A DNA stretch of 64,000 bases from NCBI GenBank assembly GCA_910575475.1, contig CAJTGD010000002.1:62001-126000 (forward strand), read 5' to 3'. The position numbers were made by a program, and so were the translations under genes. Origin of the DNA: Lachnospiraceae bacterium. Its GTDB lineage: Bacteria; Bacillota; Clostridia; Lachnospirales; Lachnospiraceae. The notes below the pieces were generated by a model, which was not told where the DNA came from, did not search any database, and saw only the letters and a program-made list of their open reading frames with translations. Below are positions 25,457-40,963 of this stretch, in pieces (positions within the stretch are counted from its first letter, which is position 1; every line of letters starts with the position of its first letter).

Positions 25457-25502
25457 CCAAAAAGCAGGCCGTCACTCTACAGATAAGGGATCTGGCCTGC
25501 TT
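25457..25502 (-). terminator. Terminator at the end of flagellin cassette 1
   Basis: Read on the minus strand: AAGCAGGCC (25494-25502), a 23-base loop, GGCCTGCTT (25462-25470), then a run of T. It lies about 40 bases beyond the stop of the CgeB-like gene and would end the cassette 1 transcript. Confidence 0.55.
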
Positions 25503-25540
25503 GATTTATCGGCCGGGAAGCATCAAAAAGATACCGCCTT

Positions 25541-26731
25541 TTATGAATCATATGAGGCGACAGCGTCCAGAATCCAGTCCGCGCAATTGGACCAGGTATA
25601 GTTATGGAACACTTTCTCATAGCCTTTTTCAATCATTGCTTCGGCCCTTGTACTGTCCCATAGCAACGAACCTGCAATCTCCGGAAGCTGTTCCAGATGT
25701 TTCAGATCATACAGCGCGATATCTTCCCCATCCGTAAAATGTTCCGTGACCCATTTGCTGGGATCGGTGAGCGGCAATGAATGTTGGAGCAGCGTATTGA
25801 AGATTCGGTCATGAGTCCCGGATTTGAACCAGGGAAATATGTTTAAATTGATTTTTGCGTCCGCCATATAGTAAAGCGTTTTTTCGTAAGGAATCCGGTC
25901 ATCAATCCGGTGCACGTTGGGATAGGAGGCCGTACTGTGGTTCTCCCATCCACGTCCCAGGAGATGGAGTTCAAATCCGGCATCCGCCAGAGCTTCCACG
26001 ACACGTCCCCTGTAATACATGCGGATCGCCCAGTCCACAGATTCCGAGAAGTTCAGCAGGGTTTTCAACTCCCCCGGTTCGGCATCAAAGCCTGCCTGCC
26101 GGATCGTCTGCAGGACAGCCTGTTCGGTGGTAAGGCTGCTGTCCTCAGTCAGAAGCCGAAACATGAATTGATAAAACTGGTAGATAGGCGTGCCCTTCTC
26201 GAAAAATTTCTCAATCTTTGCAAACATATCTTCCGGCCGGTAATAAGTGCCGGAAAATAAAATGTCATATTGTTTCTGGCTATAAGGGATGACAGGCGTA
26301 TCTTTTTGCGGCATAACACCAACGTGCGGCATGAACTCTACAAAGGGTACGGTTTCGATAAAATACCTTTTGACATATTCCACATGATCACGGTCGCAGC
26401 AGAATAAAAGATAATTCTGCGGATGCTTTTCCAGTGTGGCATGGAACCGCAGCGGCGGATCCAGAAGGATATCCACAACAATTGCCTGATGTTTGTCCCA
26501 AATATTAATATATTTCTCTTCCCTGGTTCCTATACCGTCAAAACAGATCACCACATCTATCTTTTGGGAAATGAACTCCGTAAAACGCTGGAAGGAATGC
26601 GGAGTGCCCACAGAGGAAGCAGGAATCTCCAAAATAAAGGTTTCATGTCCTCTTTTCTGAAATTCCTCTGCCAGCCTGTCTGAAAAATAACAGAGCGATT
26701 CTGTCAGCGAATAAAATAATACGATTCTCAT
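25541..26731 (-). CDS. CgeB-like glycosyltransferase, cassette 1
   Basis: A 396-residue protein resembling CgeB/'spore maturation' family glycosyltransferases (GT-B type, Glyco_trans_1_2-like C-terminus). Seen: N-terminal MRIVLFYSLTESLCYFSDRL; central YDILFSGTYYRPEDMF; C-terminal GFELHLLGRGWENH, KTLYYMADAKINLNIFPWFK and GTHDRIFNTLLQHSLPLTDP. It is paralogous to the gene at 37699-38889, with most residues identical and scattered differences, and lies in inverted orientation. It follows the GT2-TPR gene in a presumed three-gene flagellin operon, so flagellin glycosylation is the likely job (inference). It is probably silent in the present orientation. Confidence 0.78.
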   Translation of the reverse strand: MRIVLFYSLTESLCYFSDRLAEEFQKRGHETFILEIPASSVGTPHSFQRFTEFISQKIDVVICFDGIGTREEKYINIWDKHQAIVVDILLDPPLRFHATLEKHPQNYLLFCCDRDHVEYVKRYFIETVPFVEFMPHVGVMPQKDTPVIPYSQKQYDILFSGTYYRPEDMFAKIEKFFEKGTPIYQFYQFMFRLLTEDSSLTTEQAVLQTIRQAGFDAEPGELKTLLNFSESVDWAIRMYYRGRVVEALADAGFELHLLGRGWENHSTASYPNVHRIDDRIPYEKTLYYMADAKINLNIFPWFKSGTHDRIFNTLLQHSLPLTDPSKWVTEHFTDGEDIALYDLKHLEQLPEIAGSLLWDSTRAEAMIEKGYEKVFHNYTWSNCADWILDAVASYDS

Positions 26732-26815
26732 AGTTGAAATTCTCTTTCATGTTTTAAATAGCTATACATACAAACTAAAGGGCAGATTTTTCTGTCCCTT
26801 AGTATACTGTTCAGA

Positions 26816-28831
26816 TTACATCTGCCGCAGGATTTCCTGCTTCATTTTCAGAACCTCCAGATCATCCGGCAGGAGCGTGACCAGCTGCTCCGCGACTCCA
26901 TATGCCTCCTGCCATTGCCCGGCCTGGATCAGCCCCTGGAGTACCTGCTTCACCTGATTGCCAAGCGCCTGGAATTCTTCGGAAACCGGCTGCCAGGGGG
27001 GCTGCAGTTTCTCTTCCAGGTCACTGCTCAGTACTTTTATCACATCAGACATCTCCGGAAGCGCACGAACCGCCTTTGCCAGAAGAGGAATACAGCTGCT
27101 GTAATCCTGACTCGCCAGGCAATCCAGGACATTTTTCATATGAAGCACAAATTTATACCGGGATGGCAGCGCATAATAATCCGGTATGGAGAGAATCTCA
27201 CTTTTATATAGTGATTCTGCCTCCGTAATCACGACGTTGCAGTATTCCTGTAAAAGTTCCAGCAGGCCTGCTATTTCCAGAGAGTTCTGCATCAGCTGCT
27301 TTTCCAGGAAATACTGCTGTAGCCGCCCTGCATAGATGGGGTACCCGGTTGCTTCCTGCTGGAGATTTTGCGCGAGTTCAGGCATATCTGAGATTTCCGT
27401 ACGCTCTGCCAGTATCTTCGCACAAGCGTCCCAGTTTTCTATGGACAGCTGTTCAAACAGCGGATCCAGTGAAAATTGATTCCTTACGGCAAGCTCCGCG
27501 AGCTGGTACAGGAATGCATGGGGACAGTTCGCCGCACAGCTCTTGAATAAATCCTCTGCTTCCGTAAATCGCTGTGTTTCTTCCGCGTACAATGCCTTTT
27601 GGAGCGTGACATATCCATTGTCTGTCTGCAGTATGGAATACCCCTCCAAGATTCTGCGTCTCTGTTTGGGATAATTGTGCTTCCAGTTTTCCAGATTCTG
27701 ATACTGGAAGCGTACCTGCTCTTCATCCTCCCAAGGAATCCAGGTGAGGAATTCTTTGATCTGGCGGGCGTCTTCCAGCTCGGCGGCAAAGAGAAGCCCG
27801 CCGACATAAGCGGTCATGCAGCGTTCTTTCGCGCTGGCGTAAGTGACGGTGGCGCCGTTCTGGCGTTCTGCTTTGTCAGGGTGGTTTTTGAGATATTTCA
27901 TCCTGTCACGGTAAGCACGGACATGTCGGATCCCTTTTTCAAATTCCTTCAATTCCCAGCAGAGCCCGGCCATGATCGCATGGAGATGGGCCTGTCCGAC
28001 CTCCAGGGTACGCGGAGACAGAAGCAGACGTTCTCCTTCCTTCAATGCCTCTTCGGGCCTTCCGACAGAGGAGAGGAGGAGCGGAAAACGCACCTGCATC
28101 CACAGCTCACAGGCTCCTACTCTTGCCTCCTTTTCCGCAAGCTTCAGGCCCTGGCGGCAGTACTTGATGGCTGTCTCATAATCGTCAATGCTCTGGTATT
28201 CCTGTACTAACTGCATGCAGTTGTGGACATCCGGCTTCTTTTCATATTCCTTAAGGAGCGGAGGGAGGTTCCGTGCAAACTTGGAAGCTTTGTATTTCTC
28301 GCGATCCTTTTCTGCATAACCATAATGGTGTACGAAACAATGGAAAAATTTATTTGGCTTGTCGAGCGGGTTGAGAAACTCATGGATCGGGTTTATAAAT
28401 TGAGTCTCAGGGGTCAGGCGGCACATGCGGGCTACGTTGGCATCTGTGTATTGTCTGCCGCTCCAGTCCGTATAGTTGCGGACAACGTAATACCCGGATC
28501 GGAATTTCTGATATTCTCCGCTCTGGAAGAATTGGATAATCTCGCTCGGGTCTTCAAACCACTCATCATCATCTATAAATAAAAACCATTCCCCTGAGGC
28601 TTCCCGCAGCCCTGTATTCCGCGCGGCAGAAAAATCATCGCACCAGGTAAACGGGAGGATGTGGGATGTATACTGTCGGATGAGGTTCAGTGTTGCCTGT
28701 TCCTTTCCGGTAAAAACAACAATCAGTTCACTGCTCAGTTCTTTCAGGAACGGAGTCAGGGAATCCAGGCATTTTTTGAGAGTATCCGGACGGTCTGATG
28801 CCAGGAGGGAGATAGTAAGCTGGATATTCAT
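26816..28831 (-). CDS. GT2-TPR glycosyltransferase, cassette 1
   Basis: A 671-residue enzyme with an N-terminal GT2 domain (residues about 1-230) and a long helical, TPR-like C-terminal part. GT-A features: DDFSAARNTGLREASGEWF, then LFIDDDEWFEDPSEI (DxD near residue 87) and CRLTPETQFINPIHEFLNPL. It lies 82 bases downstream of flagellin 1 beyond a terminator hairpin. The N-terminal half is almost identical to the protein at 35616-37631; the C-terminal third differs more. The fixed link to a flagellin gene supports flagellin glycosylation. ATG follows AAAAGGAG. Confidence 0.82.
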   Translation of the reverse strand: MNIQLTISLLASDRPDTLKKCLDSLTPFLKELSSELIVVFTGKEQATLNLIRQYTSHILPFTWCDDFSAARNTGLREASGEWFLFIDDDEWFEDPSEIIQFFQSGEYQKFRSGYYVVRNYTDWSGRQYTDANVARMCRLTPETQFINPIHEFLNPLDKPNKFFHCFVHHYGYAEKDREKYKASKFARNLPPLLKEYEKKPDVHNCMQLVQEYQSIDDYETAIKYCRQGLKLAEKEARVGACELWMQVRFPLLLSSVGRPEEALKEGERLLLSPRTLEVGQAHLHAIMAGLCWELKEFEKGIRHVRAYRDRMKYLKNHPDKAERQNGATVTYASAKERCMTAYVGGLLFAAELEDARQIKEFLTWIPWEDEEQVRFQYQNLENWKHNYPKQRRRILEGYSILQTDNGYVTLQKALYAEETQRFTEAEDLFKSCAANCPHAFLYQLAELAVRNQFSLDPLFEQLSIENWDACAKILAERTEISDMPELAQNLQQEATGYPIYAGRLQQYFLEKQLMQNSLEIAGLLELLQEYCNVVITEAESLYKSEILSIPDYYALPSRYKFVLHMKNVLDCLASQDYSSCIPLLAKAVRALPEMSDVIKVLSSDLEEKLQPPWQPVSEEFQALGNQVKQVLQGLIQAGQWQEAYGVAEQLVTLLPDDLEVLKMKQEILRQM

Positions 28832-28860
28832 AAGGGAAAACTCCTTTTCATGTAGTATAA

Positions 28861-28894
28861 AGAAAAAAGGCTTCTTCCGAAAAAGAAGCCTTTT
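28861..28894 (-). terminator. Hairpin terminator after flagellin 1
   Basis: Minus-strand stem AAAAGGCTTCTT (complement of 28883-28894) with AAGAAGCCTTTT (complement of 28865-28876), six-base loop, then TTTTTT-rich sequence. The same element follows flagellin 2. It should limit read-through into the glycosyltransferase genes. Confidence 0.85.
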
Positions 28895-28912
28895 CTATGA
28901 AAATTCAATTCA

Positions 28913-29770
28913 TTACTGGAGTAACTGAAGAACTCCCTGCGGTACCTGGTTAGCCTGTGCAAGCATAGCCTGAGAAGCCTGAACAAGGATGTTATTCTTC
29001 GTGTAAGCCATCATTTCCTTCGCCATATCTACGTCACGGATACGAGACTCGGAAGCAGTGATGTTCTCGTTCTGAACATTCAGGTTGTTGATCGTATGCT
29101 CCAGACGATTCTGCAGTGCACCGAATGTAGAACGTAAGGAAGAAATGTTATCAATTGCATTATTGATACTGGTTATAGCTCCCCTTGCCTGATCAGCAGT
29201 AAGAATAGAAACATCATTCTTCAGATCTATTCCTGTGGTCGGTGAACCATCCAAACTAATTCCTGCGATGTTGCTTGCAGACATCTGCGCAAGAGTAACT
29301 GCCAACTGGTTATTGGTAGATCCGGACTCACCAACATGGAGCTTAATAACACTATCACTTGTAAATAACTTCATACCATTGAAGTTAGCGGTCTGACCAA
29401 TCCTGTCAATCTCAGCATACAGATTCTTCATTTCCTTTTCCATTTCCATACGGTTCGTAGAAGAATATGTTCCGTTGGCAGACTGTGTAGCCAGCTCAAC
29501 CATACGATTCAGCATGGAGTGAACTTCTGTCAGAGCGCCTTCTGCTGTCTGTACAAGAGATACACCGTCGTTAGCATTCTTTTCAGCTGTTGCAAGACCT
29601 GTGATCTGTGCACGCATCTTTTCGGAAATAGCCAATCCAGCAGCGTCATCGCCTGCACGGTTGATCTTATAACCAGATGATAATTTCTCCAGGTTCTTTC
29701 CTACAGAAGAGTTGTTGTTGGATAAATTTCTGTGAGCATTTAATGCTGTAATATTATGTTGAATTCTCAT
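28913..29770 (-). CDS. Flagellin 1 (cassette 1, probably OFF)
   Basis: Flagellar filament subunit of 285 residues consisting only of the D0/D1 parts; no D2/D3 domain. The N-terminus MRIQHNITALNAHRNLSNNN and the C-terminus (ITASESRIRDVDMAKEMMAY, ending SQAMLAQANQVPQGVLQLLQ) are essentially identical to flagellin 2, while the centre (about residues 130-205) differs (for example LFTSDSVIKLHVG and SPTTGIDLKNDVSI). ATG at 29770 is set by AAGGAGGAATCACT; the open frame extends upstream through the shared leader but is not the true start. Upstream lies the left recombination site, and no sigma-28 promoter is seen inside it, so this copy is probably silent here. Confidence 0.95.
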   Translation of the reverse strand: MRIQHNITALNAHRNLSNNNSSVGKNLEKLSSGYKINRAGDDAAGLAISEKMRAQITGLATAEKNANDGVSLVQTAEGALTEVHSMLNRMVELATQSANGTYSSTNRMEMEKEMKNLYAEIDRIGQTANFNGMKLFTSDSVIKLHVGESGSTNNQLAVTLAQMSASNIAGISLDGSPTTGIDLKNDVSILTADQARGAITSINNAIDNISSLRSTFGALQNRLEHTINNLNVQNENITASESRIRDVDMAKEMMAYTKNNILVQASQAMLAQANQVPQGVLQLLQ

Positions 29771-29889
29771 AGTGATTCCTCCTTGAATTTTTACCAGGGA
29801 ATTCCTTTTCCCCGTCTGATTAATAATTGTTTTGTAAGAAGCGTCGGGAAGCGAAATAAACATAATTTATGGAACAATGCCGGCGAACT

Positions 29890-29915
29890 GTCCAATAAAG
29901 TACACTTTTCCAGAT
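29890..29915. repeat. Left 26-bp inversion site (candidate)
   Basis: Half-site GTCCAATAAAGT (29890-29901), core AC (29902-29903), half-site ACTTTTCCAGAT (29904-29915). Seen from inside to outside the core reads GT, the same as at the right site. The outer half-site is identical (inverted) to that of the right site; the inner half-site shares only the core-proximal bases. Length and layout (two 12-bp halves around two bases) resemble hix-type sites of serine invertases. Confidence 0.7.
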
Positions 29916-29931
29916 TGTATTTTCCTGAAAA

Positions 29932-29984
29932 TAATGCTAAAATCATCATATCATTCAGAGAAATTAAAAAGGATAGATTAAAAT
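29932..29984 (+). repeat. 53-bp direct repeat, copy A
   Basis: Lies upstream of the first AAA-ATPase-like gene and matches 31770-31822 with a single mismatch. It contains TCATCATATCATTCAGAG and GGATAGATTAAAAT. With the 3' 34-bp repeat it frames each gene of the tandem pair. Confidence 0.9.
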
Positions 29985-30021
29985 AAAAATTAACTTGTTA
30001 TTCAGAAAGGTATGTGCTTAT

Positions 30022-31701
30022 ATGGGAAAATTTCTAAACAGCAAAAAAGCCGCGTTGCTTTTTAAGGATGATGCCGATTCCACTTATTTTGTAGATAAAA
30101 CGGCAATTCTTGATGAATTGATCCCGATCATTGATCCAGGCGTTCGGCCAGACAATAGAGCATGCTGCAGCGGAAAATACTTGGGCAGGAGTGGAAAATA
30201 TATCTGTATCATCCGTCCCCGCCGCTTTGGAAAGTCTGTGATGGCTAATATGATCGCGGCATATTTTGGAAAAGGCAGGGACACCCGCCCCGTTTTTGAT
30301 CAACTGGAGGTCAGCACCCGGAACTGGTATCAGGCGCACATCAATCAGCACAATGTGATCCATATCGCATTTAACTCATTGCCGGCTGACTGCACCTCTT
30401 ACCGTCAGTATATCCAGCGGATACAAAAACGCCTCATACGTGATCTGATACAGGAATATCCGGACGTGGGAATTTCGGAAGATGATGCTCTGTGGGATGC
30501 ACTGAATGATATTCTGGAATCCAGGACGGAAGATGTAAAATTTATTTTTGTCTTGGATGAATGGGACTTCATCTTTCACAGGGACTTTGTAACAGACAAG
30601 GATCGTGCAGAATACATCGATTTTCTGAGCAACCTGCTGAAAGACCAGCCCTATGTCGAGCTTGCTTACATGACGGGCATCCTGCCAATCGCAAAATATT
30701 CCAGCGGTTCGGAACTGAATATGTTTTTAGAATACACCATGGCTTCCGAAGAACGTTTCAGCGAATTTTTTGGCTTTGGTGAGTCCGAAGTAGATACACT
30801 TTTCAGCAGATATCAAACGCTCACAGAGTGTCCAAAGGTTACCCGGGAAGGCCTGCGGGTATGGTACAACGGCTATCATACAAAGGGCGGCGGCCGTGTT
30901 TACAATCCACGTTCGATCGTGGCGTCACTGACAAATAACAATCTGGGAAATTACTGGACAAGCGCAGGGCCTTACGATGAAATATTTTATTATATCCGTC
31001 ATAACACTGCTGCTGTAAGAAATGACCTGGCGCTGATGGTTTCCGGCATACCGGTCCGTACAAATGTCCGGGAATATGCCGCAGTATCCATGAATCTGAC
31101 CACCCGTGACGAAATATTTTCCGCAATGGTTGTATATGGTTTCCTCAGCTACGAAAACGGTTATGTCAATATTCCGAACAAGGAATTGATGGACAAATTC
31201 GATGACATGCTGCAAAAGGAGCCATCCCTTGGCTATATTCATCAGCTGGCCGAAAAGTCCGGACAAATGCTCAAGGCTACTTTGGAAAACGATACTGCGT
31301 CAATGCTCGAAATTCTGGAGTTTGCGCATAATACAGAAGTTCCACTGCTGACATACAATCATGAGACGGAGTTGACTGCCGTAGTGAATCTTGTATACCT
31401 GGCCGCGAGAGATTTTTACCGGATTGAACGTGAGGACAGGGCAGGGATTGGGTACGTGGATTTTATTTTTTATCCGGAATTTGACAGAAATGCAGATGGA
31501 ATCATTCTGGAATTGAAGGTAGGCCATACGCCGGAAGAGGCGCTCCAACAGATCAAAAATAAAAAATACGCGTTAAAATTTGAAGGGAAGCTTGGAGAGG
31601 AAAGCAGGTATACAGGAAGGATCCTCGGGGTCGGGATTACTTATGATAAGGAGACAAAGGTGCATGAGTGTAAGATTGAGGTGCTGAGGGAAGCTCTGTA
31701 A
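30022..31701 (+). CDS. AAA-ATPase-like protein with C-terminal PDDEXK domain (1)
   Basis: A 559-residue member of the AAA-ATPase_like (PF09820-type) plus PD-(D/E)XK nuclease-like (PF08011-type) family, common in multiple copies in Lachnospiraceae and Bacteroidetes; cellular role unknown. Seen: FVDKTAILDELIPII, a P-loop variant RPRRFGKS (65-72), Walker B-like FIFVLDEWD (about 174-182), GILPIAKYSSGSELNMF, NYWTSAGPYDEIFYYIRHN, and the nuclease-like GYVDFIFYPE with IILELKVG. It has about 20 residues before the P-loop that the second copy lacks. ATG at 30022 aligns with the second copy's start. It lies inside the candidate invertible segment. Confidence 0.85.
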   Translation: MGKFLNSKKAALLFKDDADSTYFVDKTAILDELIPIIDPGVRPDNRACCSGKYLGRSGKYICIIRPRRFGKSVMANMIAAYFGKGRDTRPVFDQLEVSTRNWYQAHINQHNVIHIAFNSLPADCTSYRQYIQRIQKRLIRDLIQEYPDVGISEDDALWDALNDILESRTEDVKFIFVLDEWDFIFHRDFVTDKDRAEYIDFLSNLLKDQPYVELAYMTGILPIAKYSSGSELNMFLEYTMASEERFSEFFGFGESEVDTLFSRYQTLTECPKVTREGLRVWYNGYHTKGGGRVYNPRSIVASLTNNNLGNYWTSAGPYDEIFYYIRHNTAAVRNDLALMVSGIPVRTNVREYAAVSMNLTTRDEIFSAMVVYGFLSYENGYVNIPNKELMDKFDDMLQKEPSLGYIHQLAEKSGQMLKATLENDTASMLEILEFAHNTEVPLLTYNHETELTAVVNLVYLAARDFYRIEREDRAGIGYVDFIFYPEFDRNADGIILELKVGHTPEEALQQIKNKKYALKFEGKLGEESRYTGRILGVGITYDKETKVHECKIEVLREAL

Positions 31702-31702
31702 G
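31669..31702 (+). repeat. 34-bp direct repeat at 3' end of AAA gene 1
   Basis: Starts TGTAAGATTGAGGTGCTGAG and ends at the stop codon; identical to 33485-33518. It codes the common C-terminus CKIEVLREAL in both genes. Confidence 0.9.
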
Positions 31703-31769
31703 TTTGGAGATTGAAGGTATGAACTTTTGCTTAAGAGATACCATTGATTCATCGGTTAAAAGTACAAAT

Positions 31770-31822
31770 TAATGCTAAAATCATCATATCATTCAGAGAA
31801 ATAAAAAAGGATAGATTAAAAT
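31770..31822 (+). repeat. 53-bp direct repeat, copy B
   Basis: Matches 29932-29984 with one mismatch and lies upstream of the second AAA-ATPase-like gene, showing that the tandem pair arose by duplication of gene plus upstream region. Confidence 0.9.
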
Positions 31823-31897
31823 GGCGAAATCTAATAACAGCATATAAGATCCAACAGCATCAATGTGTTTTAATAAAAAATGAAAGGAACTGCGTAT

Positions 31898-33517
31898 ATG
31901 GGAATTTTTTTGAACAGCAAAAGCCCTTGTGCCGATTACCGCGAAACAGTATCAGACCTGTATTTTGTTGATAAATCCATGCTGATCACGGAACTGATCC
32001 CAGCGTTGGAAAAGAAAAACCGTTTTTTCTGTATTACAAGACCTCGTCGTTTTGGGAAAAGCGTTATGGCAAATATGATTGGTGCGTTTTTTTCAAAAGC
32101 GGTGGATTCCAGCGGCCTTTTTGACCGTCTGGCAATCGCAAAACACAGATCATACAGTGAGCATCTGAACCGGCACAATGTCATTTATATTGATTTCAGC
32201 CGAATGCCGGAAGACTGTGACTCCTATCAATCCTATATCAGCCGGGTTCAAAATGGCCTGAAAGAAGATCTCATACTGGAATATCCGGCTCTTGCGCTTG
32301 ATCCGGCAAAAGCCGGATGGGATATTTTGCAGCAGATATTTGAAAAACAGGGTGAAAAGTTTATATTTGTGATAGATGAATGGGACGCTATATTTCATAG
32401 GTCATTTATTCGGGAGACTGACAAAGAAAAATATCTTGCATTTCTGAGAAATCTTTTGAAAGATCAGGTCTACGCAGAGCTGGTCTACATGACCGGGGTA
32501 CTTCCGATTGCAAAATACTCCAGTGGTTCAGAACTGAATATGTTTTTGGAATATGATATGGCAACCAAGAAAAAATTCAGTGAATATTTTGGTTTTTCAA
32601 ATACAGAGGTTGATATCTTGTTTGAAATATATCAACAGGAGACAGCGCATCCGGAGATATCGAGGAAAGACCTGGGGCTTTGGTATGACGGTTACTGTAC
32701 TGCAACAGGAAAAAGACTGTATAATCCCCGTTCGGTCATATGCGCACTGACAGACAATGAGCTCTCCAATTATTGGACGAGTTCAGGTCCCTACGATGAA
32801 ATTTTTTATTATATCCGAAATAATATCGAAAATGTCCGGGAAGATCTGGCATTAATGGCAGCCGGAGAACGCATTCCTATTATACTTCAAGGATATGCGG
32901 CTGTAGAAGACGAACTGGAAACAAAAAATCAGATTTATTCCGCAATGGTTGTGTATGGACTCCTTACTTATGAGGACGGCGCGGTTTTTATTCCGAACAA
33001 AGAATTGATGGATAAATATAATGAACTGCTCATCACAAATGACAGTCTGGGATATGTCCACCGTCTGGCAAAAGAATCAGAAAAAATGCTTGCCGCAACA
33101 TTGTCCGGGGAAACAAAAACAATGACGGAAATCCTGAAGCTTGCGCATGACACGGAATCACCGATCCTTTCCTATAATAATGAAACTGAACTATCGGCAG
33201 TGGTGAATCTGGTCTATCTGGTGGCAAGAGACAAATATCGTGTAGAGCGCGAAGACAAAGCAGGGGAAGGATTTGTAGATTTTATCTTTTATCCGGAACG
33301 AAGGAATGCCGTCGGCCTTATTTTGGAATTAAAGGTGGACAGTACACCGGAAGAAGCCATATGCCAAATTAAGGAGAAGAACTATATACTCCGCTTTACC
33401 GGAAAGGTCGGAGAAAAAGAAAAATATAAAGGGAAAATATTGGCAGTGGGAATCAGTTATAGTAAAAAAACGAAAGAACACAGATGTAAGATTGAGGTGC
33501 TGAGGGAAGCTCTGTAA
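31898..33517 (+). CDS. AAA-ATPase-like protein with C-terminal PDDEXK domain (2)
   Basis: A 539-residue paralogue of the preceding gene, of the same AAA-ATPase_like/PDDEXK family. Seen: FVDKSMLITELIPAL, RPRRFGKS (48-55), FIFVIDEWDAIFHRSF, GVLPIAKYSSGSELNMF, NYWTSSGPYDEIFYYIRNN, and GFVDFIFYPE with LILELKVD. The proteins are clearly diverged over most of their length although the flanking repeats are almost identical. ATG at 31898 follows GAAAGG and matches copy 1; an ATG at 31880 is in frame but overlaps that site. Function unknown; its place beside the recombinase may mark it as cargo of the segment. Confidence 0.85.
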   Translation: MGIFLNSKSPCADYRETVSDLYFVDKSMLITELIPALEKKNRFFCITRPRRFGKSVMANMIGAFFSKAVDSSGLFDRLAIAKHRSYSEHLNRHNVIYIDFSRMPEDCDSYQSYISRVQNGLKEDLILEYPALALDPAKAGWDILQQIFEKQGEKFIFVIDEWDAIFHRSFIRETDKEKYLAFLRNLLKDQVYAELVYMTGVLPIAKYSSGSELNMFLEYDMATKKKFSEYFGFSNTEVDILFEIYQQETAHPEISRKDLGLWYDGYCTATGKRLYNPRSVICALTDNELSNYWTSSGPYDEIFYYIRNNIENVREDLALMAAGERIPIILQGYAAVEDELETKNQIYSAMVVYGLLTYEDGAVFIPNKELMDKYNELLITNDSLGYVHRLAKESEKMLAATLSGETKTMTEILKLAHDTESPILSYNNETELSAVVNLVYLVARDKYRVEREDKAGEGFVDFIFYPERRNAVGLILELKVDSTPEEAICQIKEKNYILRFTGKVGEKEKYKGKILAVGISYSKKTKEHRCKIEVLREAL

Positions 33518-33518
33518 G
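33485..33518 (+). repeat. 34-bp direct repeat at 3' end of AAA gene 2
   Basis: Identical to 31669-31702, covering the last codons and the stop. Confidence 0.9.
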
Positions 33519-33601
33519 GTTTCCTGAAATTTCACCGTAAATAGTAAAGAAATCATCAGTGCAAGAACAAAGTGCCGAAAGGAATATGAGACACAAATTC
33601 A

Positions 33602-33734
33602 TTCAACTTTTTGCATTTTTCAGTATACTTAAAAACAGGCTGATTCGGTGTTCAATATTTATAGTAATGATGGCGCAGGACATATGAATTTAAGAGCCTT
33701 TTTGCAATATTTATTTAAAGCATACTGAAAATGC
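33602..33734 (+). promoter_or_regulatory. Recombinase promoter with an inverted repeat
   Basis: A sigma-A candidate is TTCAAC (33602-33607), 16-base spacer, TATACT (33624-33629). An inverted repeat overlaps it: GCATTTTTCAGTATAC (33613-33628) and GCATACTGAAAATGC (33720-33734), the second ending right before the AGGAGG of the recombinase. The arms could be operator sites for self-repression. Confidence 0.45.
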
Positions 33735-33748
33735 AGGAGGTACAGGGA

Positions 33749-34378
33749 ATGGATAGCAAAGTATACGGGTATATCAGAGTTTCTACGCGGGAACAGAACA
33801 TTGAACGACAGATGATCTCACTTCTCGACGCAGGTGTAAACCAAAAAGATATTTATATCGACAAACAGAGCGGAAAAAATTTTCAGCGCCCTGCCTACAA
33901 AAAGATGATGCGGCGGGTTCGGGAAGGGGATCTGGTCATTGTGAAAAGCATTGACCGCCTCGGGCGGAACTATCAGGAAATCATGGAGCAATGGCGCATT
34001 ATCACGAAAGAAAAGAAGGCGGACATCTGTATTCAGGATATGCCTTTATTGGACACAACCAAGACAAAGGATCTGCTTGGCACCTTCATTAGTGATGTTG
34101 TCCTGCAATTACTTTCTTTTGTGGCAGAAAATGAGCGTGATAATATCCGCCAGAGACAAGCCGAGGGAATTGCTGCTGCGAAAGCAAGAGACGTCCGATT
34201 TGGGAAACCAACGATTCCTATACCCGATAATTTTCCAGAATTATATATGCGGTGGGAGGCCAATGATATTTCGATTACAGAATTTGCAAGCCTTTGCAAT
34301 ATGGGACGTAGCACAATGTATAAAAGGATTGGGGAGTACAGGGAGTGTCTTTGCCAAAGAAATGAGTTCCAAATATAG
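33749..34378 (+). CDS. Small serine recombinase (DNA invertase/resolvase family)
   Basis: Site-specific recombinase of the Hin/Gin/resolvase type. The 209 residues show the catalytic motif YIRVSTREQ with Arg10 and Ser12, IDRLGRNYQEI (D69-R73) of the active site, the long E-helix region (FVAENERDNIRQRQAEGIAA) and a C-terminal helix-turn-helix (SITEFASLCNMGRSTMYKRI). ATG at 33749 is chosen because AGGAGG lies eight bases upstream; the ATG at 33731 overlaps that site. It lies inside the segment bounded by the 26-bp sites, next to the flagellin promoter, as Hin lies inside its own switch. It is the likely enzyme for inversion. Whether it needs a Fis-like enhancer is unknown. Confidence 0.92.
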   Translation: MDSKVYGYIRVSTREQNIERQMISLLDAGVNQKDIYIDKQSGKNFQRPAYKKMMRRVREGDLVIVKSIDRLGRNYQEIMEQWRIITKEKKADICIQDMPLLDTTKTKDLLGTFISDVVLQLLSFVAENERDNIRQRQAEGIAAAKARDVRFGKPTIPIPDNFPELYMRWEANDISITEFASLCNMGRSTMYKRIGEYRECLCQRNEFQI

Positions 34379-34457
34379 GATATTATGATGTTAGCAGTAC
34401 TATATTTTGTAGGATATATCGCATAAAAATTATTCCAAAAAAATTTTCAAAAAGTCT

Positions 34458-34483
34458 TAAGTTATTCGGATATCATACGATAT
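34458..34483 (+). promoter_or_regulatory. Sigma-28-like promoter for flagellin 2, inside the invertible segment
   Basis: TAAG (34458-34461), 15-base spacer, ACGATAT (34477-34483), against the Gram-positive sigma-28 consensus TAAA-N15-CCGATAT. It points right, 28 bases before the right 26-bp site, and gives a leader of about 165 bases to the flagellin 2 ATG. A TATAAT at 34481-34486 overlaps it but has no -35. I saw no equal match at the left end of the segment. Confidence 0.7.
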
Positions 34484-34510
34484 AATAAATGTCAAGAAGT
34501 TTTAGGGAGA

Positions 34511-34536
34511 GTCCAAATAAGTGTACTTTATTGGAC
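34511..34536. repeat. Right 26-bp inversion site (candidate)
   Basis: Half-site GTCCAAATAAGT (34511-34522), core GT (34523-34524), half-site ACTTTATTGGAC (34525-34536). The halves match in 10 of 12 positions as an inverted repeat. Sequence identity with the left arm starts at AAGT next to the core (34519) and goes outward, as expected for exchange at the core dinucleotide. Confidence 0.75.
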
Positions 34537-34656
34537 AGTTCGCCGGCATTGTTCCATAAATTATGTTTATTTCGCTTCCCCGACGCTTCTTACAAAACAA
34601 TTATTAATCAGACGGGGAAAAGGAATTCCCTGGTAATCATTCAAGGAGGAATCATT

Positions 34657-35532
34657 ATGAGAATTCAACATAATATTACAGCATTAAATGCTCACAGAAA
34701 TTTATCCAACAACAACTCTTCTGTAGGAAAGAACCTGGAGAAATTATCATCTGGTTATAAGATCAACCGTGCAGGCGATGACGCTGCTGGATTGGCTATT
34801 TCCGAAAAGATGCGTGCACAGATCACAGGTCTTGCAACAGCTGAAAAGAATGCTAACGACGGTGTATCTCTTGTACAGACAGCAGAAGGCGCTTTGACAG
34901 AAGTTCACTCCATGCTGAATCGTATGGTTGAGCTGGCTACACAGTCTGCCAACGGAACATATTCTTCTACCAACCGTACAGAGATGCAGAAGGAAATGAA
35001 GAATCTGTATGATGAAATTGACAGAATTGGTAAGACCGCAAACTTTAATGGAATGAAGTTATTTGTTGGTAGTGGTGCAAACACAGGGCAGACAGTTATC
35101 AAACTTCATGTTGGTGAGTCTGGATCAACAAATAACCAGTTGGCAGTTACTCTTGCTGCGATGAGCGCAAGTAATATAGCAGGAATCAGCTTGGATGGTA
35201 AGCCAAGTGCAAATCCAATTAATCTGAGGAACGTTACTATTGAAACTGCTGATGGAGCAAGGGGCGCTATCACTACTGTTAACAACGCAATTGATTATAT
35301 TTCTTCCTTACGTTCTACATTCGGTGCACTGCAGAATCGTCTGGAGCATACGATTAACAACCTGAATGTTCAGAACGAGAATATCACTGCTTCCGAGTCT
35401 CGTATCCGTGACGTAGATATGGCGAAGGAAATGATGGCTTACACGAAGAATAATATCCTTGTTCAGGCTTCTCAGGCTATGCTTGCTCAGGCTAACCAGG
35501 TACCGCAGGGAGTTCTTCAGTTACTCCAGTAA
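34657..35532 (+). CDS. Flagellin 2 (cassette 2, probably ON)
   Basis: Flagellar filament subunit of 291 residues, D0/D1 only. N-terminal MRIQHNITALNAHRNLSNNN and C-terminal SQAMLAQANQVPQGVLQLLQ are the same as flagellin 1; the centre differs (LFVGSGANTGQTVIKLHVG, KPSANPINLRNVTIETADGA) and has six more residues. ATG at 34657 is set by AAGGAGGAATCATT. The sigma-28-like promoter at 34458-34483 points into it, so it is the likely expressed flagellin in this orientation. A terminator follows. Confidence 0.95.
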   Translation: MRIQHNITALNAHRNLSNNNSSVGKNLEKLSSGYKINRAGDDAAGLAISEKMRAQITGLATAEKNANDGVSLVQTAEGALTEVHSMLNRMVELATQSANGTYSSTNRTEMQKEMKNLYDEIDRIGKTANFNGMKLFVGSGANTGQTVIKLHVGESGSTNNQLAVTLAAMSASNIAGISLDGKPSANPINLRNVTIETADGARGAITTVNNAIDYISSLRSTFGALQNRLEHTINNLNVQNENITASESRIRDVDMAKEMMAYTKNNILVQASQAMLAQANQVPQGVLQLLQ

Positions 35533-35550
35533 TACATTGAATTTTCATAG

Positions 35551-35586
35551 AAAAGGCTTCTTTTTCGGAAGAAGCCTTTTTTCTTT
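35551..35586 (+). terminator. Hairpin terminator after flagellin 2
   Basis: Stem AAAAGGCTTCTT (35551-35562), loop TTTCGG, AAGAAGCCTTTT (35569-35580), then TTCTTT. Twin of the element after flagellin 1. The glycosyltransferase ATG is 30 bases downstream, so the enzymes are probably made by read-through at a lower level than flagellin. Confidence 0.88.
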
Positions 35587-35615
35587 AGATACTATATAAA
35601 AAGGAGTTTTCCCTT

Positions 35616-37631
35616 ATGAATATCCAGCTTACTATCTCCCTCCTGGCATCAGACCGTCCGGATACGCTTAAAAAATGTCTGGATTCCCTGACCCCGTTCC
35701 TGAAAGAACTGAGCAGTGAACTGATCGTTGTCTTTACCGGAAAAGAACAGGAGACCTTGAATCTCATTCGACAGTATACCTCCCACATCCTCCCGTTTAC
35801 CTGGTGCGATGATTTTTCTGCCGCGCGGAATACAGGGCTGCGGGAAGCCTCAGGGGAATGGTTTTTATTTATAGATGATGATGAGTGGTTTGAAGACCCG
35901 ATCGAGATTATCCAATTCTTCCAGAGCGGAGAATATCAGAAATACCGATCCGGGTATTACGTTGTCCGCAACTATACGGACTGGAGCGGCAGACAATACA
36001 CAGATGCCAACGTAGCCCGCATGTGCCGCCTGACCCCTGAGACTCAATTTATAAATCCGATCCATGAGTTCCTCAACCCGCTCCTTAAACCAAATAAATT
36101 TTTCCATTGTTTTGTACACCATTATGGTTATGCCGAAAAGGATCGCGAGAAATATAAAGCTTCCAAGTTTGCACGGAACCTCCCGCCACTTCTCAAGGAA
36201 TATGAAAAGAGACCGGATGTCCACAACTGCATGCAGTTAGTACAGGAATACCAGAGTATTGACGATTTCGAGACAGCCATCAAGTACTGCCGCCAGGGAC
36301 TAAAGCTTGCGGAAAAGGAGGCAAGAGTTGGAGCCTGTGAGCTGTGGATGCAGGTGCGTTTCCCACTCCTCCTCTCCTCTGCCGGAAGGCCCGAAGAGGC
36401 CTTGAAGGAAGGAGAACGTCTGCTCCTGTCTCCGCGTACCCTGGAGGTCGGACAGGCCCACCTCTATGCCATCATGGCCGGACTCTGCTGGGAATTGAAA
36501 GAGTTTCAAAAAGGAATCCGGCATGTGCGTGCCTATCGTGAGAAAATGAGGTATCTCAAAAACCACCCTGATAAGGCGGAGCGTCAGAACGGGGCTACAG
36601 TCACTTATGCCAGCGCAAAAGACCGATGCATGACTGCATATGTTGGAGGACTGCTTTTCGCCGCAGAGTTAGAAGATACTCGCCAGATCAAAGAATTTCT
36701 CACCTGGATCCCATGGGAGGATGAAGAGCAGGTAAAATTTCAGTACCAGAACCTGGAGAACTGGAAGCATAATTATCCCAAACAAAAAAACAGCATTTTG
36801 GAAGGCTATTCTATTCTGAAAACGGATAACGGATATGTCACGCTTCAAAAGGCTCTGTATGCGGAGGAAACACAGCACTTTACAGAAGCAGATGAGTTTT
36901 ACAGGATGTGTGTTAGCAGCTGCCCGCATGCTTTCTTATATCAGCTGATCGAGCTTGCTGTGAGGAATCAATTTTCGCTGGATCCATTGTTCGAGCAGCT
37001 GTCCATAGAGATCTGGGATGAATGTGCAAAACTACTTACAGAACGTACACAAACTGTGGATATGCCTGAATTTTTAAGGAATGTCCAGGCCGGTACAGCA
37101 GGATATCCCATCTATACCGGACGCTTGGAACAGTATTTTCTGGAAAAACAGCTGATACAGAGTTATCTGGAAATATCAGATCTTCTGGAGCTGTTACAGG
37201 AGTATTGCAGGGTCGTTATCGCGGAAGCAAACAGCTTATATAAAAGCGAGGTGCTCTCCGATCCGGATTACTATGCGCTTCCATCCCGGTATAAATTCTC
37301 TCTTGTCATGGAGAAGGTTCTGGATGGCCTGTCGAACAACGATTATAACAACTGCATTCCTCTTTTGTCAAAAGCAGTCCATGCGTTTCCGGAAATGTCA
37401 GATGTGATAAGAAAACTGAGCAATTATCTGGAAGAAAAATTACAGACGCCCCGTCAGCCGGTTTCTGAGGAATTTGAATCCTTGGGCAATCAGGTGAAGC
37501 AGGTGCTGCGTGGGCTGGTAGAGACCGGGCAATGGCAGGAAGCCTTCGGTGTTGCGGAGCAGCTTATGGCACTCTTGCCAAATGACCTGGAAGTCCTGAA
37601 AATGAAGCAGGATATCCTGCGGCATATATAA
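35616..37631 (+). CDS. GT2-TPR glycosyltransferase, cassette 2
   Basis: A 671-residue paralogue of the gene at 26816-28831, with the same GT2 domain (DDFSAARNTGLREASGEWF; LFIDDDEWFEDPIEI) and helical TPR-like C-terminal region ending EEFESLGNQVKQVLRGLVE and NDLEVLKMKQDILRHI. Differences from cassette 1 gather in the last third, the part that would contact the acceptor or partners if the TPRs bind flagellin. It follows flagellin 2 and its terminator, on the same strand. Flagellin O-glycosylation is the likely role (inference from position and family). Confidence 0.82.
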   Translation: MNIQLTISLLASDRPDTLKKCLDSLTPFLKELSSELIVVFTGKEQETLNLIRQYTSHILPFTWCDDFSAARNTGLREASGEWFLFIDDDEWFEDPIEIIQFFQSGEYQKYRSGYYVVRNYTDWSGRQYTDANVARMCRLTPETQFINPIHEFLNPLLKPNKFFHCFVHHYGYAEKDREKYKASKFARNLPPLLKEYEKRPDVHNCMQLVQEYQSIDDFETAIKYCRQGLKLAEKEARVGACELWMQVRFPLLLSSAGRPEEALKEGERLLLSPRTLEVGQAHLYAIMAGLCWELKEFQKGIRHVRAYREKMRYLKNHPDKAERQNGATVTYASAKDRCMTAYVGGLLFAAELEDTRQIKEFLTWIPWEDEEQVKFQYQNLENWKHNYPKQKNSILEGYSILKTDNGYVTLQKALYAEETQHFTEADEFYRMCVSSCPHAFLYQLIELAVRNQFSLDPLFEQLSIEIWDECAKLLTERTQTVDMPEFLRNVQAGTAGYPIYTGRLEQYFLEKQLIQSYLEISDLLELLQEYCRVVIAEANSLYKSEVLSDPDYYALPSRYKFSLVMEKVLDGLSNNDYNNCIPLLSKAVHAFPEMSDVIRKLSNYLEEKLQTPRQPVSEEFESLGNQVKQVLRGLVETGQWQEAFGVAEQLMALLPNDLEVLKMKQDILRHI

Positions 37632-37698
37632 ATTTGTGATCGCAGAGTATTTAATAGCATTCATTTTTATGTCATGAAAAAAGAAGGAGAAGTCAACT

Positions 37699-38889
37699 AT
37701 GAGAATCGTTTTATTTTATTCTGAAACAGAATCCCTCTGTTATTTTACAGACAGGCTGGCAGAAGAATTTCAGAAAAGAGGACATGAAACCTTTATCTTG
37801 GATCTCCCTGCTTCTTCTGCGGATACTCCGCACTCCTTCCGGCATTTTACGGAGTTTATTTCGAAAAAAATTGATGCAGTAATCTGCTTTGACGGTATCG
37901 GAACCAGGGAAGATATGTTTATTGATACCTGGAATAGGCATCAGGCTGTTGTTGTGGATATCCTGCTGGATCCGCCGCTGCGGTTTCATCCTACGTTGGA
38001 AAAGCATCCGCAGAATTATCTTTTATTCTGCTGCGACCGCGATCATGTAGACTATGTAAAAAGGTACTTTAACGAAACTGTGCCTTTTGTAGAGTTCATG
38101 CCGCACGTTGGTGTTATGCCGCAAAAAGATGCGCCTGTCATCCCTTATAGTCAGAAACAATATGACATTTTATTTTCCGGCACTTATTACCGGCCGGAAG
38201 ATATGTTTGCAAAGGTTGAAGGAATTTTCGAGAAGGGCACGCCCATTTATACATTTTATCAATACATGTTCAAGCTTCTTGTAGAGGACAGCAACCTTAC
38301 TATAGAGCAGGCCGTCCTGGAAACGATTCGTCAGGCCGACTTCCAGCCTGATCAAAAGGAACTGAAAACCCTTCTGGGGTTCTCGGAGGATGTGGACTGG
38401 GCGATCCGTATGTATTACAGAGGGCGCGTTGTAGAGGTATTGGCAGACGCCGGATTTGAACTCCACCTATTAGGCCGTGGATGGGAAAATCACTGCACGG
38501 CCTCCTATCCGAACGTACACCGGATTGATGACCGAATTCCTTACGAAAAAACGCTTTACTATATGGCCGACGCAAAAATAAATTTAAACGTATTTCCCTG
38601 GTTTAAATCCGGAACCCATGACCGGATTTTTAACACATTGCTCCAACATTCATTGCCTCTCACTGATCCCAGCAAATGGGTTACGGAACATTTTACGGAT
38701 GGTAAGGACATTGCACTGTATGATCTGAAGCACCTGGATCAGCTTCCGGAGATTGCGGGTTCGCTGCTCTGGGACAGCACAAAGGCCGAAGCAATGATCG
38801 AAAAAGGCTATGAGAAAGTGATTCATGATTATACCTGGTACAATTGCGCGGACTGGATATTATCAAAAATTTCATCTGTCCAAGCCTGA
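37699..38889 (+). CDS. CgeB-like glycosyltransferase, cassette 2
   Basis: A 396-residue paralogue of the gene at 25541-26731 with the same CgeB-like layout: MRIVLFYSETESLCYFTDRL, YDILFSGTYYRPEDMF, GFELHLLGRGWENH and GTHDRIFNTLLQHSLPLTDP. The differences concentrate around residues 175-225 and at the extreme C-terminus, where the arms stop matching. ATG follows AAGAAGGAG. It probably works with the upstream GT2-TPR enzyme on flagellin 2. Confidence 0.78.
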   Translation: MRIVLFYSETESLCYFTDRLAEEFQKRGHETFILDLPASSADTPHSFRHFTEFISKKIDAVICFDGIGTREDMFIDTWNRHQAVVVDILLDPPLRFHPTLEKHPQNYLLFCCDRDHVDYVKRYFNETVPFVEFMPHVGVMPQKDAPVIPYSQKQYDILFSGTYYRPEDMFAKVEGIFEKGTPIYTFYQYMFKLLVEDSNLTIEQAVLETIRQADFQPDQKELKTLLGFSEDVDWAIRMYYRGRVVEVLADAGFELHLLGRGWENHCTASYPNVHRIDDRIPYEKTLYYMADAKINLNVFPWFKSGTHDRIFNTLLQHSLPLTDPSKWVTEHFTDGKDIALYDLKHLDQLPEIAGSLLWDSTKAEAMIEKGYEKVIHDYTWYNCADWILSKISSVQA

Positions 38890-38944
38890 ATTTTTCCGGT
38901 ATAATAGCAATAGCTATTAGTTTAAACAAAAGGAGAATTCTACC

Positions 38945-40963
38945 ATGAGCATACAGCTTTCTATCTCTCTTTTAATGTCAGACCGGCCGGAGACCGCGGG
39001 GAAATGTCTGGCATCCTTAAAGCCTTTGTTAAAAGAGCTGGACAGTGAACTGATTGTTGTTTTTACCGGAAAAAACAATGATATCCTGGATTTGATCCGG
39101 CAATATACCTCCCATATCATTCCCTTTACCTGGTGCAATGATTTTTCGAAAGCACGGAATGCCGGATTAAAGGAGGCAAAGGGGGAATGGTTTCTCTTCC
39201 TTGACGATGATGAATGGTTCGAGGATACGGAAGAGATCATTCGCTTTTTCAAAAGCGGCGAGTACAGGCAATACCAATCCGCGCTTTACATTCAGCGGAA
39301 TTACTCCGATTGGGACGGACAATGCTATGCGAATTCGGATGTGGGGCGCATGTGCCGCCTGACTCCTGATACAAAATTTGTATATCCGATCCATGAAAAC
39401 CTGAACCCTTTTCCTGAGCCTTACAAATACCTCCGAAGCTATGTCCATCATTACGGCTATGTGGAAAAGCCTGATTCTGCGTCCGGGAAACGCAAAAGCC
39501 AGCGGAATCTGTCCCTGCTCCTGGAGAATTATAAGAAGTCTCCCTCCGCCCAGTACTGCATGCAGATCACACAGGAATATACGACTGTAAAAGAATACGA
39601 CACGGCTGCTGCATATTGCAGAGAAGGGCTGAAGCTTGCCGCAAAGGAGGGGCGGATCGTGGAATCCTACGAGTTATGGATGCAGGCGCATCTTCCTTTC
39701 CTGATTTCCTCCGCAGGTGAACCAAAGACTGCGATCAGGGAAGGGGATACACTCCTGTCTTCCCCGAGAACCCTGGAAGTCGGCAAGGCATATATATACA
39801 ATACTCTGGTGGATCTATGCCAGCAGTTAAGGGATTTCCAGAAGGGGATTGACTATGTACGGAAGTATCATCAGACAATGGAATATCTGCGCAAACATCC
39901 TGAAAAAGCCAGCCGCCAGAAATGCCTTTCTATTACATTTTCCGATGTGGAAGGACGAAGTGCTAAAACCTATATTGCAGGATTATGCTTTGCCGCAAAA
40001 ATGGGGAATCTCGATTTGGTAAAAGAACTGCTTGCATGGATTCCGTGGGATGATACCGCCCAGGTTCAGTCTTGCTATTCCGAACTGGAAGAATGGAAGC
40101 AAAATCATGAAGATCTGCTGGATATGATATTAGAAGGATTTTCCCAGCTAAAGACAGAAAACGCCTATGTATGCCTTCAAAAATCGCTTTTCGCTGTAAA
40201 GACCGGACAATATTTCGATGCAGAAAGATACTGGAAGGCATGCGCTGTTCAATGCCCGTCCGAATTGCAGCCGCATTTGGCAGAGGCTGCCGTCATGCAT
40301 GGGTTTTCCTTAAAGCCATTTTGGGAAAATATCTCCTTGGAATCATGGACAGAATGTGCCGATGGATTGGCAGAACGTATTGCTGTTCCAGATATGCCGG
40401 CATTTTATCAAAAGATTTTACCGGAATTAGAGGAGTTTCCGCTCTACGCGGAAAGGCTCAATCAGCGGTTCCTGGAAAAACAGCTTCATTACGGACTTCT
40501 TGATCTCTCAAAGCTAACGGAATTGCTGGGGACATACTGCGGAAGTGTTCTGACAGAAGCAAAGGCATTGTATCGGGATGAGCTTCTACGTGATCCTGAT
40601 TCCTACGCCCTGCCGCCCCTGTATAAGTTTGCCTTTTTGGTACAGGACGTCCTGGGCTTGATAGAAACCGGAAAGCTGGCTGAATGCATTCCTTTATTAA
40701 AAAAGGCAGTCCGCGTCTATCCCCGGATGTCCGCCCTGATCGGACGTCTGACAAAATTGATCGATGAGCAGGCAAACAGACCGCAGACAACAGTTTCTGA
40801 GGAATTTGCGGCGCTTGGGCTCCAGGTAAAGCAGGTTCTGTATGGGCTGATCGAGAACCGGCAATGGGTCGAGGCCTATGGCGTAGCAGCTCAGCTTGCC
40901 TCACTGCTGCCGGATGATCTGGAAGTATTGCGGCTGAAGCAGGAGATACTTTGTAATATGTAA
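38945..40963 (+). CDS. Third GT2-TPR glycosyltransferase, only beside cassette 2
   Basis: A 672-residue homologue of the two cassette GT2-TPR enzymes but clearly more diverged. Conserved parts: TSHIIPFTWCNDFSKARNAG, LFLDDDEWFEDTEEI, MCRLTPDTKFVYPIHENLNP; the C-terminus again ends SEEFAALGLQVKQVLYGLI and PDDLEVLRLKQEILCNM. ATG follows AAAGGAG, 56 bases after the CgeB-like gene, with no terminator between, so it probably shares the cassette 2 transcript. It has no partner in cassette 1, so a flip would also change this activity. Confidence 0.8.
   Translation: MSIQLSISLLMSDRPETAGKCLASLKPLLKELDSELIVVFTGKNNDILDLIRQYTSHIIPFTWCNDFSKARNAGLKEAKGEWFLFLDDDEWFEDTEEIIRFFKSGEYRQYQSALYIQRNYSDWDGQCYANSDVGRMCRLTPDTKFVYPIHENLNPFPEPYKYLRSYVHHYGYVEKPDSASGKRKSQRNLSLLLENYKKSPSAQYCMQITQEYTTVKEYDTAAAYCREGLKLAAKEGRIVESYELWMQAHLPFLISSAGEPKTAIREGDTLLSSPRTLEVGKAYIYNTLVDLCQQLRDFQKGIDYVRKYHQTMEYLRKHPEKASRQKCLSITFSDVEGRSAKTYIAGLCFAAKMGNLDLVKELLAWIPWDDTAQVQSCYSELEEWKQNHEDLLDMILEGFSQLKTENAYVCLQKSLFAVKTGQYFDAERYWKACAVQCPSELQPHLAEAAVMHGFSLKPFWENISLESWTECADGLAERIAVPDMPAFYQKILPELEEFPLYAERLNQRFLEKQLHYGLLDLSKLTELLGTYCGSVLTEAKALYRDELLRDPDSYALPPLYKFAFLVQDVLGLIETGKLAECIPLLKKAVRVYPRMSALIGRLTKLIDEQANRPQTTVSEEFAALGLQVKQVLYGLIENRQWVEAYGVAAQLASLLPDDLEVLRLKQEILCNM

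What the first reader, a model, noticed from the sequence alone, without database searches (positions are those of the whole stretch)
29890..34536. Candidate DNA-inversion switch choosing between two flagellin-plus-glycosyltransferase cassettes
A 4.6-kb segment with a serine recombinase lies between two divergent, near-duplicate flagellin cassettes. It is bounded by inverted 26-bp sites and has one outward sigma-28-like promoter at its right end. A flip would move the promoter from flagellin 2 to flagellin 1. Unlike the Hin switch of Salmonella, each side would bring its own glycosyltransferases, so protein and sugar coat could change together. I know of no described system with this full layout, but I could not search.
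Basis: partly seen in the sequence, partly recalled or inferred. Interest (0 to 1): 0.95.

Follow-up and report, generated by a model that had tools for sequence, protein, structure and literature searches.

The report
Invertible promoter choosing flagellin-glycosyltransferase gene sets
A bacterium related to Schaedlerella carries a 4.6-kb DNA segment, bounded by matching inverted sites and holding a recombinase gene and a single predicted promoter, that likely flips to choose which of two flagellin-plus-sugar-transferase gene sets is switched on; a relative's genome record holds its version of the locus in two forms that differ exactly by such flips.

Summary
Confirmed and extended. Two divergent flagellin + glycosyltransferase (GT) cassettes flank a 4,621-bp segment holding a serine recombinase, two AAA-ATPase-like genes, 26-bp inverted sites (12 + GT + 12, within a perfect 62-bp inverted repeat) and one sigma-28-type promoter motif, at the right end only. 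These are the only full-length flagellins found in this genome. The layout recurs in eight further species (one with a short second flagellin); each of ten regions has exactly one promoter-bearing site. S. arabinosiphila and S. musculi arrays have four flagellins and one promoter. Inversion has happened in a relative: the redundant ends of the S. musculi contig carry different arrangements, and two in-silico inversions cut at the GT cores turn one into the other as a single 52-kb alignment at 99.64%. Promoter direction relative to the flagellar operon also differs between species. Flipping in the window's own strain was not seen. Co-switching of GTs is inferred: gene order supports it, but a terminator-like hairpin separates flagellin from GT. 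In one relative the flagellins are 99.6% identical and the GTs 71%, so glycosylation may be what is switched. A new variant of Hin-type flagellar phase variation; closest published case found: a ~120-bp promoter inverton in Flavonifractor plautii.

The parts
29890..29915 (-). left recombination site (26 bp; core GT at 29902-29903), end without the promoter; its inner half is a poor match to the half-site
34511..34536 (+). right recombination site (26 bp; core GT at 34523-34524), end with the promoter
29846..29907 (.). left arm of the 62-bp perfect inverted repeat (leader of the left flagellin plus outer site half and core)
34519..34580 (.). right arm of the 62-bp perfect inverted repeat
29903..34523 (.). 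predicted invertible segment, core to core (4,621 bp)
   Evidence: inversion inferred from relatives
34457..34482 (+). sigma-28-type promoter motif TTAAG-N16-CGATA, reading towards the right flagellin
   Evidence: not above chance by a loose pattern alone
33749..34378 (+). small serine recombinase (209 aa; ORF could start at 33731), predicted invertase
29995..31701 (+). AAA-ATPase-like + PDDEXK_9 protein, likely passenger of the segment
31880..33517 (+). second AAA-ATPase-like + PDDEXK_9 protein, likely passenger
34657..35532 (+). right flagellin (291 aa), next to the promoter in this arrangement
28913..29770 (-). left flagellin (285 aa), without the promoter in this arrangement
35549..35582 (+). 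terminator-like hairpin after the right flagellin (15-pair stem)
   Evidence: not listed by the pattern scan
28863..28896 (-). terminator-like hairpin after the left flagellin (15-pair stem)
35616..37631 (+). right GT2-family glycosyltransferase with TPR (671 aa)
37699..38889 (+). right second glycosyltransferase (Glyco_trans_1_2, 396 aa)
38945..40963 (+). third GT2-family glycosyltransferase, right side only (672 aa)
26816..28831 (-). left GT2-family glycosyltransferase with TPR (671 aa)
25541..26731 (-). left second glycosyltransferase (Glyco_trans_1_2, 396 aa)

Best explanation
The 4,621-bp segment between the two GT cores is likely an invertible promoter switch: its own serine recombinase is predicted to flip it at the two 26-bp sites, so that its one sigma-28-type promoter motif would read into either the right or the left flagellin-glycosyltransferase cassette. 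SHOWN by sequence: the inverted sites, the recombinase gene, the promoter motif at one end only, near-identical leaders in front of both flagellins, and this anatomy in eight further species (one with a short second flagellin). SHOWN in a relative: the S. musculi record holds two arrangements that differ by two inversions cut at the site cores. INFERRED: that the window's recombinase does the cutting, that the window's segment flips, that FliA uses the promoter, and that the cassette without the promoter is silent. INFERRED with less weight: the GTs are transcribed by read-through of the hairpin after the flagellin, so that filament protein and its glycosylation change together. In S. musculi and S. 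arabinosiphila, with four flagellins and one promoter, the same chemistry would act as a carousel, because the promoter end can recombine with several sites.
For: Sites and repeat. Recombinase. A FliA homologue above the curated cut-off straddles the window's left edge. Same layout in G061, G063, G065, G066, G067, G068, G071, G072 (G063's second flagellin hit covers residues 1-103 only). 27 sites in 10 regions of 9 species (S. musculi counted twice): GT core in 27 of 27 (the pattern allowed G or A, then fixed TAC); 10 with the promoter and 17 without, one promoter per region. Strict motif: 12 hits in 585,620 bp, 10 of them 65-66 bp inside a site, one per region. S. musculi contig: 1-33458 matches 5374608-5408074 (99.58%) and 42003-52217 matches 5416623-5426837 (99.81%), with the part between rearranged. 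Inverting s1-s3 and then the small segment gives one 52,217-bp alignment at 99.64%; no inversion and two tested single inversions each leave two pieces. The promoter end abuts GTACTTTTCTGG in one copy and GTACCTTTTTAA in the other, so the exchange lies within the four bases GTAC. The promoter faces the flagellar operon in G067 and G068, and away from it in the window, G065 and G061. In MAG G062 the last 127 bases of contig C11 also occur in C32, so one inner end is joined to two different flagellins.
Against: No alternate junction is in the window's own assembly. By a loose pattern the promoter is not above chance in the window; the strict pattern has three hits in the genome, so it was not shown to mark other flagellar genes, and simulated sequence of the size of the ten regions gives 1-7 hits, so position is the evidence and not number. 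The left inner half-site is poor. A terminator-like hairpin separates flagellin and GTs on both sides. The S. musculi copies come from contig ends; in the second copy the recombinase and several GT frames are broken, which I read as poor consensus there. The S. arabinosiphila recombinase match has one TAG inside it, whose place I did not check.
Confidence: 0.9

Rival explanations
1. The switch serves mainly to choose the glycosyltransferase set rather than the flagellin: the flagellins are kept alike and what changes is the sugar coat.
For: In G066 the two flagellins are 99.6% identical (271 aa each) while the first GTs are 71.3% (first 250 columns 91%, rest 60%). In 7 of the 7 regions where both could be compared for the two cassettes next to the promoter segment (window, G065, G066, G067, G068, G071, G072) the first GT is less alike than the flagellin; G063 and S. 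musculi were left out of this count because of a short flagellin and broken GT frames.
Against: GTs differ more than flagellins between species too, so they may simply evolve faster; in G065 and G067 the first GTs are about 31-33% identical and may be different paralogues. In 6 of the 7 regions the flagellins differ as well (79.7-96.1%). Transcription of GTs from the switched promoter is not shown.
Confidence: 0.4
2. The segment is a switch that once worked but is fixed in this strain; the right flagellin is always on.
For: Only one arrangement is in the assembly; the left inner half-site has decayed.
Against: Recombinase frame intact; the 62-bp repeat is still perfect; in relatives off-end half-sites are often poor too, S. 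musculi's among them, where exchange is seen.
Confidence: 0.1
3. The arrangement and the S. musculi difference come from homologous recombination or misassembly between repeated flagellin genes, not from site-specific recombination.
For: Flagellin genes and leaders are long inverted repeats; the S. musculi copies lie at contig ends.
Against: In S. musculi the partners change within the four bases GTAC, where leaders A and B differ on the very next base, and two inversions at the cores account for the whole 52 kb. Exchange inside the flagellin genes would not put the break there.
Confidence: 0.04

Closest known systems
Hin/hix flagellar phase variation of Salmonella (hin, fljBA, fliC)
   Same: Serine recombinase gene inside its own invertible segment, 26-bp sites with a 2-bp core, flagellin promoter at one end (site details recalled; the switch described in passages of PMC11868660 and PMC8306008).
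   Different: Here the promoter would serve a flagellin in each orientation, so no repressor of a distant flagellin is needed; both flagellins flank the segment; GTs follow each flagellin; two relatives have four flagellins for one promoter. By sequence the recombinase is nearer to Sin (110 bits) than to the DNA-invertase chains 4m6f and 3uj3 (62-64 bits).
hin-linked FliA-promoter inverton at csrA-tldR-fliC loci of Flavonifractor plautii (PMC13418256; section 11 read in full, other passages seen)
   Same: Gut Clostridia, invertible FliA-dependent promoter by a hin-like gene at a flagellin locus. In the F. plautii genome held here a 60%-identical recombinase lies about 2.2 kb from a flagellin, with two GTAC-centred sites about 113 bp apart beside it.
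   Different: There the inverted piece is about 120 bp and lies upstream of csrA-tldR; here 4.6 kb including the recombinase, between two flagellin + GT cassettes. My motif for the promoter did not hit the F. plautii stretch.
Shufflons and phage tail-fibre switches (e.g. the gin-linked shufflon in PMC13418256, passages seen)
   Same: More than two sites and alternative arrangements, as in S. musculi and S. arabinosiphila.
   Different: Shufflons swap 3' coding ends of one gene; here whole genes are kept and the promoter changes partner.

Membership tests
Small serine recombinases (resolvase/invertase) | Resolvase catalytic domain | tested here: met
   PF00239, 106.4 bits against a cut-off of 23.3
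Small serine recombinases (resolvase/invertase) | Belongs to the Hin/Gin invertase branch | tested here: inconclusive
   PDB sequences: Sin 109.8 bits, gamma-delta 81.9, DNA-invertase (4m6f, 3uj3) 64.2 and 62.3; NCBIfam Mpi-type invertase 58.8 bits against a cut-off of 272; no tree was built
Hin-type flagellar switch | Inverted 26-bp sites with a 2-bp core bounding a segment that holds the recombinase | tested here: met
Hin-type flagellar switch | Flagellin promoter inside the segment at one end | tested here: met
   By motif only; transcription not testable here
Hin-type flagellar switch | Both orientations exist in one strain | tested here: inconclusive
   Two arrangements in the S. musculi record; not seen in the window's strain
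Hin-type flagellar switch | Repressor gene (fljA) co-transcribed with one flagellin | not tested
   The genes identified beside the flagellins are GTs; FljA was not searched for
Hin-type flagellar switch | Fis-bound recombinational enhancer | not testable with these tools
   feature recalled; no call
csrA-tldR-fliC inverton of F. plautii | csrA-tldR between the invertible promoter and the flagellin | tested here: not met
   Right flagellin ATG (34657) lies 134 bp from the site core with no room for such genes

The most novel reading that the evidence does not exclude
Probability: 0.5. Interest if true: 0.9.

Novelty: new variant of a known kind. Interest (0 to 1): 0.78.

Why it matters
Lachnospiraceae flagellins are targets of elevated antibody responses in Crohn's disease (PMC11285207, abstract and passages seen). 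A built-in switch of flagellin, and perhaps of its glycan, in this family would make such antigens phase-variable and would offer commensals a way round antibodies, TLR5 or flagellum-binding phages (inference). It may also explain why assemblies break or disagree at these loci. The parts are compact, so ordinary long-read data can test it directly.

Tried and rejected
Alternate junction as a separate contig in the window's genome: none. A loose sigma-28 pattern as evidence on its own: not above chance. The strict motif as a marker of other flagellar genes: three hits in the genome, one of them this promoter. Comparison of whole promoter-side and off-side flanks between species: mixed for most pairs because the cassettes are paralogous; opposed for L043/L047 and L042/L107, but I rely on the operon landmark instead. 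Rfam: no hit in 24000-42000. The terminator scan as a class is not above chance (15 found, 13.7 expected); the hairpins rest on the fold. The order of recombinase and promoter inside the segment differs between species, so it was not used as a switch state. No structure prediction or tree was run.

Mistakes of mine: the right flagellin was read from five codons inside, so the 88.7% is replaced by 90.4%; the first AAA protein was read out of frame and the 13.9% is discarded. The promoter/off split used the motif itself; the count without that choice is. The looser motif also hit inside two flagellin genes of G010.

Literature: ten searches in an open-licence library; no listed paper described the two-cassette layout. 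Titles and abstract starts only were seen, except for the four papers opened. Subscription papers and preprints are not covered.
Full report
WHAT IS THERE. The window lies in a 6.06-Mb draft genome of 159 contigs. S. arabinosiphila looks to be of the same genus: same-genus genome G007 has its recombinase match at the place where the S. arabinosiphila record has it; this identification is mine. Flagellar operon genes lie at the left of the window and a FliA homologue straddles its left edge. Two flagellin genes stand head to head, 28913-29770 (-) and 34657-35532 (+). They are the only full-length flagellins found: a third hit in the genome is 39% identical over residues 25-165 only. Between them is a segment bounded by a 62-bp perfect inverted repeat. 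The repeat ends inside a 26-bp site of two 12-bp halves around GT. The right site is close to a perfect dyad; the left one has a poor inner half. The segment holds a serine recombinase (PF00239) and two AAA-ATPase-like/PDDEXK_9 genes, likely passengers, since relatives have other cargo.

THE PROMOTER. TTAAG-N16-CGATA at 34457-34482 resembles the sigma-28 consensus as I recall it. A loose version is no more frequent in the window than in shuffles. In ten regions from nine species (585,620 bp; S. musculi counted twice) the strict motif has 12 hits, 10 of them 65-66 bp inside a recombination site, one per region; ten simulated sequences of that size gave 1-7 hits in total. The other 17 of 27 sites lack it. 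Loci outside those regions (G010, G069, L045) also have a promoter-like motif by the recombinase, and G151 a near match; the looser motif used there also hit inside two G010 flagellin genes.

RELATIVES. One scan of genome contigs gave 80 loci; I examined 72 (L037-L108) and left out the eight most distant. Eleven have a flagellin within 6 kb of the recombinase, all with recombinase identity of 67% or more (L108 over a C-terminal fragment only). Three other loci of 81-86% (L037, L039, L045) are cut by a contig end; none of the remaining 58 (65% or less) has one in the held flank. A 60% homologue in F. plautii does lie near a flagellin, so linkage is not strictly limited to the closer ones. In a draw of 397 genomes of the family, 4 including the window's own pass E 1e-84, with at most 7 candidates scored per genome. 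The S. arabinosiphila array has four flagellins with four sites and one promoter, and so has that of S. musculi.

INVERSION HAS HAPPENED IN A RELATIVE. The S. musculi contig NZ_WUQX01000001.1 repeats its first 52,217 bases at its end: 1-33458 matches 5374608-5408074 at 99.58%, and 42003-52217 matches 5416623-5426837, its last base, at 99.81%. I read this as an untrimmed circular overlap; a true duplication is not excluded. Between the two matches the copies differ: the promoter end faces flagellin A in the first copy and flagellin B in the second, and the two other inner ends have changed partners too. Cutting at GT|AC and inverting s1-s3, then the small recombinase segment, turns the first copy into the second: one alignment of 52,217 bp at 99.64%. 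No inversion, the small inversion alone and the large inversion alone each leave two pieces. Leaders A and B differ directly after GTAC, so the crossover is confined to four bases. The recombinase and some GT frames are broken in the second copy, which I put down to poor consensus at the contig end. In MAG G062 the last 127 bases of contig C11 also occur in C32, joining one inner end to two different flagellins; I take this as an assembly-graph sign of both junctions.

ORIENTATION ACROSS SPECIES. With the flagellar operon as landmark the promoter faces towards it in G067 and G068, and away in the window, G065 and both copies of G061; in G063, G066, G071 and G072 the operon was not in the fetched stretch. 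In G010, with three flagellins, it faces away.

THE SUGAR COAT. Each window flagellin is followed on its own strand by GTs, as are flagellins in the relatives with full cassettes. In the window the first GTs are 98% identical over the first 250 columns and 80% after; the right side has a third GT. A strong hairpin stands between flagellin and GT on both sides (z -2.78 and -2.91); the pattern scan named only the left one. About 33 bases separate the hairpin from the right GT start, too few for a full promoter beyond it, so read-through is the likely way the GTs are expressed (inference). In G066 the flagellins are 99.6% identical and the first GTs 71.3%: there a flip would hardly change the filament protein but would change the GT set. 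In 7 of 7 regions compared the first GT is less alike than the flagellin. This is the best hint that glycosylation is what is switched, with the caveats that GTs diverge faster in general and that in some regions the first GTs may be different paralogues.

WHAT IS KNOWN. Salmonella Hin is the model. In print for gut Clostridia is a hin-linked ~120-bp inversion with a FliA-dependent promoter at csrA-tldR-fliC loci of F. plautii (PMC13418256, section 11 read). In the F. plautii genome held here the 60% recombinase homologue lies about 2.2 kb from a flagellin, with two GTAC-centred sites about 113 bp apart beside it: a cousin with related sites. I found no paper on the two-cassette or four-flagellin layout in ten searches. 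By PDB sequence the recombinase is nearer to Sin than to Gin-type invertases, so 'works like Hin' is the claim, not 'is a Hin'.

VERDICT. Real and well supported; inversion shown in a relative and inferred in the window; a new variant of a known kind.

Noticed in passing
L046/L107; G061:C2:1-52217 and 5374608-5426837: The S. musculi WCA-9-b2 chromosome record carries a redundant 52-kb end overlap in a different arrangement, perhaps why it was not closed.
   Followed up: yes
window 29928-29984 and 31766-31822: A 57-bp stretch, 96% identical, precedes both AAA-ATPase-like genes of the segment; similar AT-rich sequence (TTTAGCATTATT...GGAAAATACAAT) lies inside off-end sites of G063 and G061.
   Followed up: partly
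promoter ends; window about 34490-34510: Between the CGATA box and the site, GTCAAGAAGTTTT is largely conserved across species, more than a promoter alone would need; it may be a transcript leader or a recombination accessory element.
   Followed up: no
window 37342-37371 (-): A 12-of-12 sigma-70 consensus with TG before the -10 hexamer, antisense inside the right GT gene.
   Followed up: no
L108: A recombinase match confined to residues 154-198 beside a single flagellin, possibly a decayed, locked version of the switch.
   Followed up: no
window 41103-63885 (-): A long run of genes that look like methyltransferases, glycosyltransferases and nucleotidyltransferases beyond the right cassette (judged by eye), perhaps supplying the flagellar sugar.
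   Followed up: no
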